Positions 7,748 through 30,761 of a stretch of DNA of 30,761 nt are shown here, one piece after another (the first letter of the stretch is position 1; every line of letters starts with the position of its first letter). Source of the stretch: a virus. The DNA is taken from the IMG/VR virus record IMGVR_UViG_3300029986_000928, positions 1-30,761 of that record, one strand, 5' to 3'. Position numbers and translations under genes: made by a program. The notes below the pieces were generated by a model. It was given only the letters and a program-made list of their open reading frames with translations. It made no database searches and was not told where the DNA came from.

Positions 7748-7779
7748 TAAAAATACCACCTACTGAAAAAGTAAGTGGT
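7748..7779 (-). terminator. Intrinsic terminator inside the structural operon
   Basis: On the minus strand, ACCACTTACT (7779-7770) pairs with AGTAGGTGGT (7764-7755), 10 bp with one G-U, around a TTTTC loop, followed by ATTTTTAT. It begins one base after the stop codon of the 49-aa gene. It would stop or reduce transcription from portal and MuF genes into scaffold and capsid unless antiterminated. Confidence 0.65.
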
Positions 7780-7929
7780 TTAATATATCGGTAATTCAAT
7801 TAAACATGATTCATAATCCATTTTAATTCCGTCTTTTGCAGCATTTTCAGCTAAGTCAATGTAATCCTGAATGTCTTTTTCGCTATACCCTAACTCTTTT
7901 GCTCTTTTTCTAAATTCATCTTTTTCCAT
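7780..7929 (-). CDS. 49-aa protein partner of the MuF-zincin (candidate immunity protein)
   Basis: 49 residues, starting MEKDEFRKRAKELGYSEKDI and ending with an acidic, hydrophobic LIELPIY tail. ATG at 7929 is preceded by AAAGGAAG at a usable distance. It overlaps the last 40 bp of the MuF-zincin gene in another frame and is followed directly by a terminator, so the two genes form one transcription unit. I do not recognise a family. In MuF polymorphic toxin loci the small gene directly downstream is often the cognate immunity gene, so that role is possible here, but it is inferred from position only. Confidence 0.75.
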   Translation of the reverse strand: MEKDEFRKRAKELGYSEKDIQDYIDLAENAAKDGIKMDYESCLIELPIY

Positions 7930-9758
7930 TCAGCATACTTCCTTTCAATGATTTCGCCTATCTCTTTCGCAATAGCGCGCGGATTTGGATTATTGCAATA
8001 CTCAGACCAAGCCTCTGCGATAAATTCACTATATCGATTTTTATTATTATTTTTCCATGCATATCTAGATAATTGTTCTGTTATTTCATTTACAGTATGC
8101 CCATCAAACAAAATTTTCACAGAATTAAGATTAGATATGCCAAGCATTCCATCAATTTGATGCCCGACTTCATGATCTAACACAGAACGTATTGTGTCAC
8201 ATCCAACCGGATGAAACTTATTCATTACATCGAATTGAAGATTTTCAAACAATTTCCCAGCATCTTTTCCTTGTACTTTGTTAAAAGCAACACCTGCGAA
8301 TTCTTGAAAGGCTTCCGTTTTGGGTAGCCAGCTCGATGCATAGACATCAGAAGGTACCCGCATCATAGACATAAATTTTTTCAGTTCTTGCTCTGCATAA
8401 GGTTTTAGCCTTTCCACATCAATGCCAGGATTTTGCTTAATAAAATTATCCAAAAAGACCTGTCTAGCAACTGGTTTTAATTGGTCATTACGCTTATGAC
8501 ATTCCCCTGTAAAATTAAATTGCTGTCTTAGCTCCGGAAATGCATTAAAGCTGTCTGTCAATCCGTGATTCCATTCATTGGCAACCTGCACGTCCAATCC
8601 TGTATAATCTGCATGTTTTATACCCAGGGTAGTCATAGCAAATTGATTAGCCTCTTGAATGGTTCTTACTTCTTTATATACTACTTTCTTTATACCATTA
8701 TCCACTGCTTTTTGCAATCCTTCTTTTGAGCCATTACCAACAAATGATTTTTTCCAGTCCTCATATTTCATAGTAGCTGGCACATGATACGTTTTTCCCT
8801 TCTCATTACGCGCGGCACGTTTACCATTATCATCTTCAAAATATGGAGCTGTACAACTGCGACACCAACAATGAAAGGGCGGTGCAGTTTTTCCTGGTTG
8901 AAAATCAGACATAGCAAAAACTTTACCGTCTAAATGACGGCATATGCTAGATGTTTTTCTATCAAGCGTGGCAACAATCTCATATTTATTGACGCCTAAA
9001 TTATTAAAACAATCTTTTTGACTGGCAGATGCGAAAAAAGCAGATTCGGTCATAACCAATCTACCGGCTGCACTCTTTGAACGATTCATGTTTTCAGATA
9101 AGGTACGGATCACTTTGTCTAAGCCATCGCCACGAATTGTTGCCTGTGTAAGTTCGGTATGAAGTTGATTCAACAGCTTATCTTTGTTATCCCATACCCT
9201 GTCTGAGAAATTTTTACCGTCCGGTGTCCATGGTTTTGATAAAATCTGTTGTATACTGACTTCATTCAACCGCTGCAATTGGATGCCAACGCCAATGCCT
9301 TTTTGTAGTTCAAACGCTGTATGGTAATAGCCATCCGCATACATCTGCTGCATTGTTTTATCTAAACCATCTAACTGATTGCCATACAAAACTTCAAGAG
9401 ACTGCTGAAGCTGTAGCTTCATAGACTCAAGTTTTGAAATATGCACTTTTGCTGATGCGTTTTCAAGTTGTTTGATCCAGGTGGAACTTACATTATTTTC
9501 TTCACCATGCTTGATATAGTCTTCGACGGTCCAGTGAAACTCTTTGAGTTCATTGGCGGTAAGAAGTTTTTTTGCATCGACATAAGAAATATCATTATTA
9601 ACCGCAAGGCGCTTATACCATAAAGACATATCGCGTTCCATAGTCTGTAATGCGACACGATATTGTTTTTCAACTTCCGTGTAATAATCAAGACCTTGAT
9701 CTAAAAGAGCGAGTTCTAACTGTTCAAAGCGACCGCGCCAATATTCAGCGTTTGGCAT
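7890..9758 (-). CDS. MuF minor head protein fused to a C-terminal zincin-like metallopeptidase domain
   Basis: 622 residues, about twice the length of a plain SPP1 gp7/MuF protein. Residues about 1-310 are the MuF head-morphogenesis domain: long helices, then CRHLDGKVF (Cys273) and PGKTAPPFHCWCRSCTAPYF, the conserved Cys/His cluster of Phage_Mu_F. Residues about 330-620 form a separate domain with HEVGH at 529-533 (HExxH zinc motif, followed by QIDG) and EFIAEAWSEY with Glu582 as likely third zinc ligand, as in gluzincin-like toxins. MuF proteins with C-terminal toxin domains are a known class of phage polymorphic toxins that ride in the head and may be injected. It overlaps the portal gene by 14 bp and the 49-aa gene by 40 bp. 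Alternative: a virion protease that acts on phage or host proteins at injection rather than a toxin against competitors. Confidence 0.88.
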   Translation of the reverse strand: MPNAEYWRGRFEQLELALLDQGLDYYTEVEKQYRVALQTMERDMSLWYKRLAVNNDISYVDAKKLLTANELKEFHWTVEDYIKHGEENNVSSTWIKQLENASAKVHISKLESMKLQLQQSLEVLYGNQLDGLDKTMQQMYADGYYHTAFELQKGIGVGIQLQRLNEVSIQQILSKPWTPDGKNFSDRVWDNKDKLLNQLHTELTQATIRGDGLDKVIRTLSENMNRSKSAAGRLVMTESAFFASASQKDCFNNLGVNKYEIVATLDRKTSSICRHLDGKVFAMSDFQPGKTAPPFHCWCRSCTAPYFEDDNGKRAARNEKGKTYHVPATMKYEDWKKSFVGNGSKEGLQKAVDNGIKKVVYKEVRTIQEANQFAMTTLGIKHADYTGLDVQVANEWNHGLTDSFNAFPELRQQFNFTGECHKRNDQLKPVARQVFLDNFIKQNPGIDVERLKPYAEQELKKFMSMMRVPSDVYASSWLPKTEAFQEFAGVAFNKVQGKDAGKLFENLQFDVMNKFHPVGCDTIRSVLDHEVGHQIDGMLGISNLNSVKILFDGHTVNEITEQLSRYAWKNNNKNRYSEFIAEAWSEYCNNPNPRAIAKEIGEIIERKYAEWKKMNLEKEQKS

Positions 9759-13398: not shown

Positions 13399-13974
13399 AT
13401 GAAAGTGATGGGATTTATTGCAAGCCCTAGAAAAGAAGGCAACACCGCTTGGATAGTAAACAAAATACTCGAAGGTGCCAAAGAAGAAGGCGCTGAAACT
13501 AAATCATGGTATTTCAATGATCTTAATATCAAACCTTGCCAAGGTTGTTTGGCTTGCAAAAAGGGTGATCAAGGTTGTGTTATTAACGACGATATGCAAA
13601 AACTTTATGATGCGCTTGAACATACAGATGCCATTGTTTTCGGCTCACCGATTTACATGGGGCAAATGAGTTCCCAGGCGAAGATATTCACTGACAGATT
13701 ATTTGCGAGATTCTCTCCAAAATTTTCTCCGCATTTCAAAGAAAAAAGGAAAAAAAAGCTTATCCTTGTGTTTGATCAAGGTAATCCTGATTCTAGCCTG
13801 TTCCAGTCATATATTGATTATACGCAACATATTTTTCAACTACTGGAATTTGATGTTCAAAGCGTCCCCGTCATTGCTGGGATGCGAAATGGACCAGCTC
13901 ATGAAAGAAAAGAGTTACACACCACTATGAAAGATATAGGTTCGTCATTGGTTTCGGAACAATTTTCCAAATAA
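13399..13974 (+). CDS. Flavodoxin-like NAD(P)H-dependent FMN reductase (cargo gene)
   Basis: 191 residues. MKVMGFIASPRKEGNTAWIV is the flavodoxin-fold start with the SPRKxGNT FMN phosphate loop (residues 9-16). CQGCLACKKGDQGC (residues about 48-61) is the cysteine cluster found in iron-sulfur-flavoprotein-like and NADPH-dependent FMN reductases, followed by DDMQKLYDALEHTDAIVFGSPIYMGQMSSQAKIFTDR-type flavin-binding sequence. It probably reduces quinones, nitro compounds or similar substrates in the cytosol. It is on the opposite strand from all neighbours, with its own promoter and operator, no phage function, and its 3' end runs into a truncated ParB-like gene. It therefore looks like acquired host-benefit cargo. 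Confidence 0.9.
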   Translation: MKVMGFIASPRKEGNTAWIVNKILEGAKEEGAETKSWYFNDLNIKPCQGCLACKKGDQGCVINDDMQKLYDALEHTDAIVFGSPIYMGQMSSQAKIFTDRLFARFSPKFSPHFKEKRKKKLILVFDQGNPDSSLFQSYIDYTQHIFQLLEFDVQSVPVIAGMRNGPAHERKELHTTMKDIGSSLVSEQFSK

Positions 13975-27758: not shown

Positions 27759-28238
27759 ATGCCAAGAAACCAGTTATCTAAATTTGATAGAGAGTTGCGC
27801 TCAACAATCTCAGCTAATTTGAAAAAGTACACCTCTCATTTAACGCAGGGGCAATTGTCTGCTATGACAGGAATACCAGCATCAACTTTATCAGGTTATT
27901 TTGCAATGAGATCAACACCTAATGCAGGAAACTTACAAAAAATTGTTGATTCTCTAAACATAAACAAGTCTGATATTGACCCTCGTTTTGCAGAAAAATT
28001 GAATACGCTCAATAAACATTCCAATAAGTCTCTTCCAACACTCACACCTAAAGATGAAAATCAAATTGCGAAAGATCTTGAAAACATGATAAATGCCCTC
28101 GATGGAGCTGCAGCGATGGGTGAACCCGAAGACGCTGAAGATATGGCTATGATCAAAGCTTCCCTTGAAACTGCAATGCGTTTATCCAAACGTATTGCAA
28201 AGAAAAAATTCACGCCTAAAAAATATCGTGATGAGTAA
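27759..28238 (+). CDS. CI-like phage repressor (XRE family)
   Basis: 159 residues. Residues about 15-65 are an HTH of the XRE type: LTQGQLSAMTGIPASTLSGYFAM, SDSTPNAGNLQKI-like end (RSTPNAGNLQKIVDSLNI). The C-terminal half is acidic and helical, not a LexA/CI peptidase domain, so induction must come through the ImmA-like protease encoded next (ImmR/ImmA logic) rather than by RecA-stimulated self-cleavage. It probably binds O1-O4. AGGAGGGC precedes the ATG. Confidence 0.87.
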   Translation: MPRNQLSKFDRELRSTISANLKKYTSHLTQGQLSAMTGIPASTLSGYFAMRSTPNAGNLQKIVDSLNINKSDIDPRFAEKLNTLNKHSNKSLPTLTPKDENQIAKDLENMINALDGAAAMGEPEDAEDMAMIKASLETAMRLSKRIAKKKFTPKKYRDE

Positions 28239-28268
28239 GCATTTTATATAACAAGGATGGTAGTACTC

Positions 28269-28721
28269 ATGGATGTAAAAAAAATTGCGACTGATTTAAT
28301 CGCAAAACACAAAACAAACGACCCTTTTACGATCGCCGACCTACGTGGCATTAACGTTTTGGACTGCCCCATGAAGTCGACGCTTGGTTATTACACAAAA
28401 TATAAACGTGTCCAAAACATCATTTTAAATAGCAATATACCGGAAGCACTTCGTAGTTTTGTCTGTGCACATGAACTTGGTCATGCAATATGCCATTCGG
28501 ATTTAAATACAAAATGGTTAAAAGAAAATACTTTGTTTTCTGTTGAAAAAATTGAAGTCCAAGCCAGCACTTTTGCTATTGAGCTTTTATTACCCGATAA
28601 AATTCTTTTAGAAAGTGCTGATTGTTCCATCTATACAATTGCAAAAGAGATTGGTATTCCAAAAGATCTTGTCTATTTAAAAAATTTTGCCCGCCTATCA
28701 GAACATATGTTTCCATTTTGA
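28269..28721 (+). CDS. immA: ImmA/IrrE-family metallopeptidase (anti-repressor)
   Basis: 150 residues from ATG 28269, the start that suits AAGGATGG; an ATG at 28257 lies inside that site. AHELGHAICH (HELGH, residues about 68-72) is the zinc motif and the downstream VEKIEVQASTFAIELLLPD contains the third ligand Glu (EVQA). Members cleave their partner repressor after an SOS or cell-cell signal; here the partner is the CI-like gene 30 bp upstream. Family length fits. Confidence 0.9.
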   Translation: MDVKKIATDLIAKHKTNDPFTIADLRGINVLDCPMKSTLGYYTKYKRVQNIILNSNIPEALRSFVCAHELGHAICHSDLNTKWLKENTLFSVEKIEVQASTFAIELLLPDKILLESADCSIYTIAKEIGIPKDLVYLKNFARLSEHMFPF

Positions 28722-28858: not shown

Positions 28859-29221
28859 TTGTATGAAATTCATTTTTACTGTGATTTAAACGGAAATGAA
28901 CCGGTTAAAGAATATGTAAAAAAACTCGCCAGTAAAACCGACAAGGATAGTCGTATAAAGCTTAACAAAATTCGTGACTATGTGAAAATTTTAAGTGAGC
29001 ACGGTACTAGAGCTGGCGAACCTTATATGAAACATATTGAAGGTAACATTTGGGAACTTCGCCCCCTACGCGACAGAATTTTCTTTTTTAGCTGGAATGG
29101 TAATAGTTTTATTTTGCTTCACCAATTTATGAAAAAAACGCAGAAAACCCCCAAAAAAGAAATTGAGCAAGCACAGCGTAATATGAATGACTTTTTAGAG
29201 AGGAGTTTAGATAATGAGTAA
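28859..29221 (+). CDS. higB: HigB/RelE-type toxin (Gp49-like family)
   Basis: 120 residues. [22 protein letters not shown], then [25 protein letters not shown] and [22 protein letters not shown] are the signature of the phage Gp49-like (PF05973) RelE-superfamily toxins: 'ELRPxRDRIFF' and 'HxFxKKTxKTPxxEIxxA'. It is expected to cut mRNA at the ribosome. The start is a TTG at 28859 with AAGGGGG 8 bp upstream. Toxin-first order and an 8-bp overlap with the antitoxin gene are usual for HigBA. Confidence 0.92.
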
Positions 29222-29507
29222 AAATAAGATTACCCCGTTAGGCGAGAATTGGGATGACTTTGAAAAAACAATTTTCACGCCAGAAGAAATTGCCGCAAGT
29301 AATTTAAGAGTTGCTCTTGTTTCCGAGATTATAAACGCTCGCCAAGAACGCGGTATGACACAAAAACAATTAGAGGCAACCAGCGGTGTAAGACAACCTA
29401 TTATAGCACGATTAGAAAAGGGCTCTACTGACCCTCAACTTTCCACTTTGCTTAAAGTTCTGGCTGCTTTTGGTAAAACTCTTGCTATTGTTCCTTTACG
29501 AAAATAA
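29214..29507 (+). CDS. higA: HigA-type antitoxin (XRE family)
   Basis: 97 residues. Residues about 33-85 are an [66 protein letters not shown], a pattern typical of HigA antitoxins. It neutralises the toxin and probably represses the operon through the direct repeats. Overlaps the toxin gene by 8 bp; GAGAGGAG lies in front of the ATG. It is on the prophage border next to the integrase, so it may stabilise the prophage or act in phage exclusion. Confidence 0.92.
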
Positions 29508-29636: not shown

Positions 29637-30761
29637 ATGAAAAAACGTGCAAATGGCGAAGGTACCATTTATTTCGATGAAAAAAAGCAGCTTTATCGGG
29701 CTATGCTTGTGACTCCTGCAGGTAAACGTATGACAAAATCATCAAAGGATGAAAGTCTCGTCAAAGATTGGTTAAATGAGCAGCGGCTACTGATCGGACG
29801 TAATCAGCATATCGAGCCAACGGGGATTACAGTGGGTCAATGGTTTGATACTTGGCTTGAGGTATACGCCAGGCACAATACAAAACCGCGTACGTATGAC
29901 CGCTATTGCTCTTTACTGGATAGAGCTGAGCCACTTCGCAATGTTAAACTAACAAATTTAACGCCTGCACATTTACAGAAACTTTATAACGACCTGTCAA
30001 AAATATATGCCGGCAATACAATGAAACACATCCACTTTTGTATTAGTGGCGCATTAAAGCAGGCAGTTATCAACAATCTTATCCACATTAACCCCACTAC
30101 GAATGTAAAAACACCCACAGCACGCAAAAAAGAAATCAACATTTTCACAGCAGATGAAGTCGATCAAATGATAAATGCTGCACCGGATTATCCTTGTGAA
30201 CCAAGTATTATTCTTGCCTATACAACCGGCATGCGGCTATCTGAACTTCTCGCCTTGCGTTGGGAAGATACAGACTTAAGGAAAGCTACCGATAAGATAA
30301 AATCAACGCTTACAATCAATCAGACAGTTCACAGAAGTTTCAGCGCGGGACTATATTTTTCCGACTGTAAAAATACAAGCAGCCATAGAACAATAACTCT
30401 CCCACATGAAACTGTGGTTGCGCTCAATAAATATAAACTTAAAACTGGACGTAGCACAGGCTTAATATTTGTAAACGGAAGTGACAACCCTTATGATTCT
30501 ACATCATACTCACGTCTTGTCTACAATAGAATGAAAACCGCATTAGGAATAGAAAATAAAGGTTTTCACTGTTTTAGACATACACATGCCAGCGAGTTAG
30601 TATCTGCAGGTATACCAATTCAAGAAGTTTCAAAACGCTTAGGTCATTCTAAAATCTCAACTACCTTGGATATATATTCGCACTGCGTACCAACTGAAGA
30701 TGATCGGATCACGGATAAAATATCCGAGTTTTTGAACAAAAATAAAACACATGCAAACTAA
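29637..30761 (+). CDS. int: Tyrosine recombinase integrase
   Basis: 374 residues, complete, with its stop codon as the last three bases of the window. N-terminal AP2-like arm-binding domain (NGEGTIYFDEKKQLYRAML), a SAM-like core-binding domain about 65-160, and catalytic domain with Arg200 (TTGMRLSELL), Lys about 245, His311-Arg314 (HCFRHTH), His337 (RLGHSKIST) and Tyr347 (LDIYSH). All active-site residues are present, so it should be functional. The attP/att site is expected just right of the window. GGAGGTATTTAATT precedes the ATG. Confidence 0.95.
   Translation: MKKRANGEGTIYFDEKKQLYRAMLVTPAGKRMTKSSKDESLVKDWLNEQRLLIGRNQHIEPTGITVGQWFDTWLEVYARHNTKPRTYDRYCSLLDRAEPLRNVKLTNLTPAHLQKLYNDLSKIYAGNTMKHIHFCISGALKQAVINNLIHINPTTNVKTPTARKKEINIFTADEVDQMINAAPDYPCEPSIILAYTTGMRLSELLALRWEDTDLRKATDKIKSTLTINQTVHRSFSAGLYFSDCKNTSSHRTITLPHETVVALNKYKLKTGRSTGLIFVNGSDNPYDSTSYSRLVYNRMKTALGIENKGFHCFRHTHASELVSAGIPIQEVSKRLGHSKISTTLDIYSHCVPTEDDRITDKISEFLNKNKTHAN

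What the first reader, a model, noticed from the sequence alone, without database searches (positions are those of the whole stretch)
7780..9758. MuF head protein carrying a zincin toxin-like domain, with a 49-aa overlapping partner gene
The minor head protein has about 290 extra residues with HEVGH (529-533) and a candidate third ligand Glu582. The gene is followed by an overlapping 49-aa gene and then a terminator, so the two make a small unit. MuF-linked toxin domains are a known polymorphic class, but this zincin variant and its tiny candidate immunity protein are worth attention. The domain could be co-injected and cleave a host target.
Basis: partly seen in the sequence, partly recalled or inferred. 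Interest (0 to 1): 0.7.

Follow-up and report, generated by a model that had tools for sequence, protein, structure and literature searches.

The report
Phage head protein carrying protease toxin
A temperate bacterial virus carries, fused to a structural protein of its head, a swappable zinc-protease domain that is probably injected into bacteria with the viral DNA, next to a tiny gene that very likely encodes the matching antidote; the general type of system is already known, but this protease-antidote pair has not been described.

Summary
The 622-aa MuF minor head protein (7890-9758, minus strand) ends in an independent 265-residue domain. AlphaFold2 folds it confidently (pLDDT 94, pTM 0.89), and its closest solved folds are family M34 zinc peptidases (anthrax lethal factor, Z 12; Pro-Pro endopeptidases, Z 8-9). 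H529, E530, H533, Y566 and E578 are invariant in 42 relatives. The domain is a swappable cassette. A phiC2 MuF protein 56% identical over residues 1-344 carries Ntox50 RNase instead, Negativicutes relatives carry ADP-ribosyltransferase or PBECR2 domains, and Abouo has no extension and no small gene. The 49-aa gene is real: it has purifying selection, a Shine-Dalgarno site and a following terminator. A 43-100-aa gene directly follows 42 of 48 zincin genes, against 21 of 115 control genes. The small genes fall into at least five unrelated families that track the zincin tree. Orphan copies of the 49-aa gene occur in two genomes without the zincin, one of them inside a CDI toxin/immunity array. 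Best reading: a MuF polymorphic toxin with an M34-like protease effector and a new small immunity family. Toxicity, target and neutralisation are untested.

The parts
8739..9758 (-). MuF minor head protein core, residues 1-340 of the 622-aa protein; homologous to complete short MuF proteins such as the 346-aa protein of phage Abouo
   Evidence: Pfam PF04233 and TIGR01641; Abouo gp4 covers residues 2-341 and ends there
8688..8738 (-). low-confidence linker, residues 341-357, after the conserved junction motif MKYEDWKK; C-terminal cassettes are swapped from about here on
   Evidence: pLDDT about 55-70 up to residue ~357, then 98; same junction before an unrelated C-terminus in L012
7893..8687 (-). 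C-terminal M34-like zincin (metallopeptidase) domain, residues 358-622: predicted effector
   Evidence: 58 loci with the domain; AF2 pLDDT 94 / pTM 0.89; VIA-align Z 12 to lethal factor, 8-9 to PPEP-1/3; some relatives hit Pfam ATLF
8160..8174 (-). HEVGH motif, residues 529-533: two zinc-ligand histidines and the catalytic glutamate E530
   Evidence: invariant H, E, H in 42 sequences
8061..8063 (-). Tyr566, candidate catalytic (transition-state) tyrosine
   Evidence: invariant; Y-x6-E spacing in 22 of 42 sequences
8025..8027 (-). Glu578, most likely third zinc ligand (first E of EFIAE; E582 and E586 are also invariant)
7780..7929 (-). 49-aa gene, predicted immunity protein (family F1), starts inside the muF gene (40-nt overlap)
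   Evidence: conserved in F1-type loci; dN/dS well below 1 in nearly all pairs; orphan copies; helix-helix-tail model pLDDT 81; no Pfam or NCBIfam match above cut-off
7938..7945 (-). Shine-Dalgarno-like AAAGGAAG eight bases before the ATG of the 49-aa gene
   Evidence: sequence
7755..7779 (-). intrinsic terminator directly after the 49-aa gene (ACCACTTAC..GTAGGTGGT, then ATTTTTAT)
   Evidence: hairpin plus T-run at the same place in L008, L009, L020, L021, L022, L024

Best explanation
This is a MuF-type polymorphic toxin-immunity module of a temperate phage. The MuF half places the protein in the phage head. The C-terminal M34-like zinc metallopeptidase travels with the virion, enters the recipient bacterium with the DNA, and cleaves one or a few host proteins, which slows or reprograms the recipient or weakens its defences. 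The 49-aa protein, translated from a start codon inside the muF gene with its own ribosome-binding site, binds and blocks the protease in the producing cell and in lysogens. Shown here: domain boundaries, zincin fold and active-site conservation, cassette swapping at one junction, and the conserved linkage, purifying selection and orphan copies of the small gene. Inferred: packaging and ejection (from MuF biology and the Apk2 precedent), proteolytic activity, toxicity, the host target, and inhibition by the 49-aa protein.
For: Position in terminase-portal-MuF-scaffold-capsid order of an integrase-carrying phage. Independent zincin fold closest to M34 peptidases; active site invariant in 42 sequences. 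Same MuF scaffold with other toxins: phiC2 56% identical over 1-344 with Ntox50 at E 1e-33; Negativicutes MuF relatives 53-55% identical with ADPrib_exo_Tox or PBECR2. MuF proteins without an extension lack the small gene: 0 of 7 against 16 of 20 with an extension, Fisher p 0.0004. Small gene of 43-100 aa after 42 of 48 zincin genes against 21 of 115 control genes, p 6e-17. Partner families F1-F5 need 9 changes on the zincin tree against 22.8 when shuffled. 49-aa gene: dN/dS below 0.5 in nearly all pairs. Orphan F1 genes in G306 and (twice) G086, which have no zincin at E 0.01 with the sensitive profile; one lies between hemagglutinin repeats and an Endonuclea_NS_2/YezG-like toxin-immunity pair. 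Published precedent: 191 MuF toxins, 20% with a metallopeptidase domain, 89% followed by a small ORF (PMC5576092); MuF toxin Apk2 is toxic in E. coli and neutralised by its neighbour IapK (PMC12226406).
Against: No experiment shows that any M34-type MuF domain is toxic, packaged or active. The window protein itself scores no Pfam peptidase family, and Foldseek alone gives only weak E-values (best 0.67). The partner-clade association could partly reflect shared phage ancestry. A distant relative of the 49-aa protein seems to be a chromosomal gene near lepB/ribD in several Negativicutes, so the family may have functions other than immunity.
Confidence: 0.72

Rival explanations
1. The zincin is not a growth-inhibiting toxin but an injected anti-defence or take-over protease: it cleaves a host defence or regulatory protein at the start of infection and favours the phage. 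The 49-aa protein only keeps it silent in the producing cell.
For: Head-packaged enzymes such as T4 Alt act this way (PMC5512222); Jamet et al. propose mild MuF peptidases that affect lysis-lysogeny or resistance to defence (PMC5576092). The tested linkage patterns fit it equally well.
Against: Orphan immunity copies in host genomes, one in a CDI array, suggest that bacteria gain by neutralising the domain, which fits harm to the recipient better. Swaps for RNase and ADP-ribosyltransferase toxins fit a toxin slot better.
Confidence: 0.2
2. The zincin is a processing enzyme of the head: a prohead or scaffold protease, or an autoprotease that trims the MuF protein during assembly.
For: Some PHROG relatives are labelled 'head maturation protease' (phrog_595), and one distant BFVD match is 'Capsid maturation protease'. 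Zincins in polyvalent phage proteins are proposed to be autoproteolytic (PMC5512222).
Against: Abouo has the same terminase-portal-MuF-scaffold gene order with no zincin, and phiC2 and others carry an RNase or ADP-ribosyltransferase there instead, so assembly does not need it. The domain is last in the protein, with no downstream domain to release, unlike MuF-zincin-PBECR2 proteins L104 and L106.
Confidence: 0.06
3. The 49-aa protein is not an immunity protein but a packaging chaperone or adaptor, or an unrelated small late gene, while the zincin is a toxin.
For: Small ORFs are common in phage late operons (21 of 115 large control genes have one). A related small gene may sit in unrelated chromosomal contexts.
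Against: It is missing where the extension is missing; unrelated families replace it in step with zincin clades; orphan copies lie without any zincin and in a CDI toxin/immunity array, where a virion chaperone would be useless.
Confidence: 0.12

Closest known systems
MuF polymorphic toxins (Jamet et al. 2017, PMC5576092)
   Same: MuF N-terminal domain, variable C-terminal enzyme (20% metallopeptidases among 191), small ORF directly downstream, temperate phage, DNA-packaging gene module
   Different: This M34-like zincin and its 49-aa partner family are not discussed in the main text searched; the supplementary toxin tables could not be read here
Apk2 / IapK / Aph1 of Streptococcus pneumoniae and other prophages (PMC12226406)
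   Same: MuF toxin gene followed by a small immunity gene; neutralisation by binding shown experimentally
   Different: Effector is a (p)ppApp synthetase, not a protease; two immunity genes
Peptidase family M34: anthrax lethal factor (Pfam ATLF) and Pro-Pro endopeptidases PPEP-1/2/3
   Same: Catalytic fold and HExxH...Y...E layout
   Different: Low sequence identity (mostly 11-19%) over about 150-185 residues; carried by a phage head protein with no lethal-factor-type delivery domains; target presumably bacterial
Zincin MPTase domains of polyvalent phage proteins and Tox-MPTase1-5 (PMC5512222, PMC3482391)
   Same: Zincin effectors of mobile elements, some MuF-linked
   Different: Often internal and thought to be autoproteolytic; the Tox-MPTase1-5 rows list no cognate immunity protein; here the domain is terminal with a dedicated small partner
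CDI / polymorphic toxin immunity arrays with orphan immunity genes
   Same: An orphan copy of the 49-aa family lies in such an array (L128)
   Different: The cognate zincin toxin is absent from that genome

Membership tests
MuF polymorphic toxin | N-terminal MuF domain | tested here: met
   PF04233 E 2e-16, TIGR01641 E 1.5e-23
MuF polymorphic toxin | C-terminal domain interchangeable with other toxin domains on related MuF proteins | tested here: met
   Ntox50, ADPrib_exo_Tox, PBECR2 or none on MuF relatives, up to 56% identical over the MuF part
MuF polymorphic toxin | Small ORF (<150 aa) directly downstream | tested here: met
   49-aa gene, conserved; 42 of 48 zincin genes against 21 of 115 controls
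MuF polymorphic toxin | Located in the packaging module of a temperate phage | tested here: met
   terminase, portal, scaffold, capsid neighbours; integrase, HTH repressor-like gene and IrrE-like gene in the window
MuF polymorphic toxin | Toxicity of the C-terminal domain and neutralisation by the partner | not testable with these tools
   needs expression assays
Peptidase family M34 (lethal factor / PPEP) | M34-type zincin fold | tested here: met
   AF2 model, VIA-align Z 12.1 (183 residues, rmsd 3.8) to lethal factor, 8-9 to PPEP-1; the listed rows are nearly all M34
Peptidase family M34 (lethal factor / PPEP) | HExxH, catalytic Tyr, third-ligand Glu with Y-x6-E spacing | tested here: met
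   all invariant; Y-x6-E in 22 of 42, longer by a loop insert in this protein
Peptidase family M34 (lethal factor / PPEP) | Recognised by the family's sequence profile (Pfam ATLF) | tested here: inconclusive
   6 of 41 full-length relatives hit ATLF at E<=0.01 (best 2.6e-5), this protein does not; PDB profile search E 0.0097
Peptidase family M34 (lethal factor / PPEP) | Proteolytic activity | not testable with these tools
   needs purified domain
Polymorphic-toxin immunity protein | Genetic linkage to the toxin domain, replaced or absent when the domain is | tested here: met
Polymorphic-toxin immunity protein | Orphan copies outside the toxin locus | tested here: met
   G306 and G086 (two copies), one in a CDI-type array
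Polymorphic-toxin immunity protein | Membership in a described Imm family | tested here: not met
   no Pfam or NCBIfam match above cut-off; this is a feature of naming, not of function
Polymorphic-toxin immunity protein | Binds and inhibits the toxin | not testable with these tools
   no complex prediction offered; needs assay
Autoprocessing zincin of polyvalent/PVC toxins | Sits between the trafficking part and a downstream toxin domain | tested here: not met
   zincin is C-terminal with nothing after it

The most novel reading that the evidence does not exclude
One small immunity family guards bacteria against a phage-delivered protease and has been captured into chromosomal immunity arrays (CDI loci), so that phage head toxins and contact-dependent toxins draw on a shared pool of antidotes. 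In addition, one protease fold is countered by at least five unrelated mini-inhibitors, mostly 49-70 residues long and several starting inside the toxin gene, which would be a new set of natural M34-type protease inhibitors.
Probability: 0.4. Interest if true: 0.65.

Novelty: new member of a known kind. Interest (0 to 1): 0.47.

Why it matters
Phage-borne MuF toxins are widespread, but only the (p)ppApp synthetase type has been characterised in the papers read here. This pair makes the protease branch testable with two small genes. The five partner families would be compact natural inhibitors of M34-type zinc peptidases. The orphan copies give a direct way to ask whether bacteria acquire immunity against phage-injected effectors.

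Tried and rejected
Direct Pfam and NCBIfam search of the C-terminus: only a weak FAD_binding_3 hit and one other sub-threshold hit, judged spurious. tblastn of the C-terminus (E 1e-3) and of the 49-aa protein (E 1) against annotated phages: nothing. A genome-contig scan with A1 chose MuF-linker patterns and so found mostly MuF neighbours, useful only for L008-L012. An alternative tail-as-pseudosubstrate idea (conserved LIELP-x end of many F1 proteins) was noted but is not supported across the family: L025, L028, L030, L032, L043, L048 and L066 lack it. Prohead-protease and autoprocessing readings were considered and rejected because phages with the same head gene order lack or swap the domain. 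Absence of other folds in the PDB list is not taken as evidence.

Full report
Observation. The window is a temperate phage genome or fragment with tyrosine integrase, IrrE-like and HTH genes on the right (29637-30761, 28257-28721, 27759-28238) and a minus-strand late operon. Terminase small and large subunits, an SPP1-type portal, the 622-aa MuF protein, the 49-aa gene, a scaffold and the major capsid protein follow in that order. The small gene has a Shine-Dalgarno-like AAAGGAAG eight bases before its ATG and a terminator directly after it.

Domain anatomy. Pfam and TIGRFAM place the MuF domain at residues 198-306. Phage Abouo encodes a complete MuF protein that stops where residue 341 lies here, and it has no small gene behind it, so residues 1-340 are the whole head protein and the rest is an addition. 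AlphaFold2, with an alignment of 42 natural domains, gives low confidence up to about residue 357 and about 98 afterwards (mean pLDDT 94, pTM 0.89). VIA-align puts lethal factor first (Z 12.1, 183 residues, rmsd 3.8) and then PPEP-1, -3 and -2 (Z 7-9); the 49 listed rows are nearly all M34 peptidases. Foldseek alone is weak (E 0.67). Six of 41 full-length relatives match Pfam ATLF at E 0.01 or better.

Active site. H529, E530, H533, S564, Y566, E578, A581, E582, E586 and R594 are invariant. The interval from Y566 to E578 is 7 residues in 22 of 42 sequences and 12 in 15 sequences with a loop insert. M34 enzymes have tyrosine and third-ligand glutamate 7 apart (established knowledge of lethal factor and PPEP-1), so E578 is the better candidate for the ligand.

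The domain is a cassette. Fifty-eight viral loci carry it. Pfam finds MuF in 31 of the 41 full-length parents, and Phage_min_cap2, VG15 or Mu portal domains in a few others. BLAST clusters show that the zincin with the same partner family F1 also sits behind N-termini not alignable with MuF (L043, L048, L066). Conversely, close MuF relatives carry other ends: phiC2 (55.7% identical over 1-344) has the RNase toxin Ntox50 at E 1e-33, and Negativicutes prophages 53-55% identical have ADP-ribosyltransferase (L101, L105) or PBECR2 nuclease (L104, L106) domains. In 30 MuF loci from Negativicutes, 16 of 20 proteins with an extension of at least 100 aa and a readable 3' side have a small gene behind them, against 0 of 7 short ones (the size limits were set after looking).

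The small gene. Synonymous differences far exceed non-synonymous ones among F1 genes (dN/dS mostly 0.05-0.5), so it is a selected protein. A 43-100-aa ORF starting within -60 to +30 nt of the stop follows 42 of 48 distinct zincin genes, against 21 of 115 other large genes in the same loci (Fisher p 6e-17). The partners fall into at least five families unrelated to each other by BLAST at E 0.01: F1 (this one, 20 loci), F3 (12), F2 with CxxC and AFPxGIP motifs (6), F5 (3) and F4 (2). On the zincin tree these labels need 9 changes against 22.8 when shuffled, although shared phage ancestry contributes. None of the partner proteins scanned reaches a Pfam cut-off.

Orphans. A profile of F1 finds strong matches (E 1e-19 to 1e-23) in five of 380 Negativicutes genomes. 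Three of these are known zincin prophages; G306 (one copy) and G086 (two copies) have no zincin even at E 0.01 with the sensitive profile. One G086 copy lies between a hemagglutinin-repeat protein and an Endonuclea_NS_2 toxin with its YezG-like immunity gene, that is, in a CDI-type toxin/immunity array (L128). The other lies beside an HNH-like gene and a transposase, and the G306 copy in a prophage-like remnant. This is the behaviour expected of an immunity gene, and is hard to explain for a virion chaperone.

Mechanism. Most likely the MuF part puts a few copies of the protein in the head, the zincin enters the recipient with the DNA and cleaves bacterial proteins, and the 49-aa protein inhibits it in the producer. 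Packaging is inferred from MuF literature. Experimental precedent exists for another MuF toxin: Apk2 is toxic in E. coli and is blocked by the neighbouring IapK (PMC12226406). Jamet et al. counted 20% metallopeptidases among 191 MuF toxins and a small ORF after 89% (PMC5576092). The finding is therefore a new member of a known kind, with a new candidate immunity family and an unusual link to a chromosomal immunity array.

Limits. There is no experiment, the target is unknown, complexes could not be predicted, and the supplementary toxin tables of Jamet et al. were not readable here, so an earlier listing of this exact domain cannot be excluded. Viral proteins named 'Lethal factor' and 'MuF-like minor capsid protein' in BFVD match the model, which shows that the resemblance is already present in automatic annotation.

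Noticed in passing
L090:1501-1686 (+); similar in L089, L091-L095: A conserved ~62-aa chromosomal gene of several Negativicutes, between lepB and ribD or near upp/radA, resembles the first 43 residues of the 49-aa partner (profile E 5e-9 to 2e-6 in these loci). It may be an ancestral or domesticated relative.
   Followed up: partly
L128:5878-6027 (-): Orphan copy of the 49-aa family inside a CDI-type array with hemagglutinin repeats, repeated VTKKERPL-starting cassettes and a YezG-like immunity gene.
   Followed up: yes
window 7755-7779 (-): Terminator after the toxin/partner unit stands inside the late operon, before scaffold and capsid genes, and its position is kept in relatives with different sequences; how capsid genes are transcribed past it is unclear.
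   Followed up: partly
window 28859-29507 (+): Gp49-like (DUF891) gene followed by an HTH gene, which looks like a HigBA-type toxin-antitoxin pair next to the integrase.
   Followed up: partly
window 13399-13974 (+): NADPH-dependent FMN reductase/flavodoxin-like gene on the plus strand next to the minus-strand terminase genes: a possible cargo gene.
   Followed up: partly
L104 and L106: MuF proteins with an internal zincin motif (HEYGH, HEFAH) followed by a PBECR2 nuclease: possible autoprocessing zincin releasing a nuclease, unlike the terminal zincin here.
   Followed up: partly
L036, L049, L068, L071, L072, L073: Partner family F2 (CxxC ... AFPxGIP ... GDxGI), a putative metal-binding mini-protein behind the same zincin domain, without a Pfam match for the two members scanned.
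   Followed up: partly
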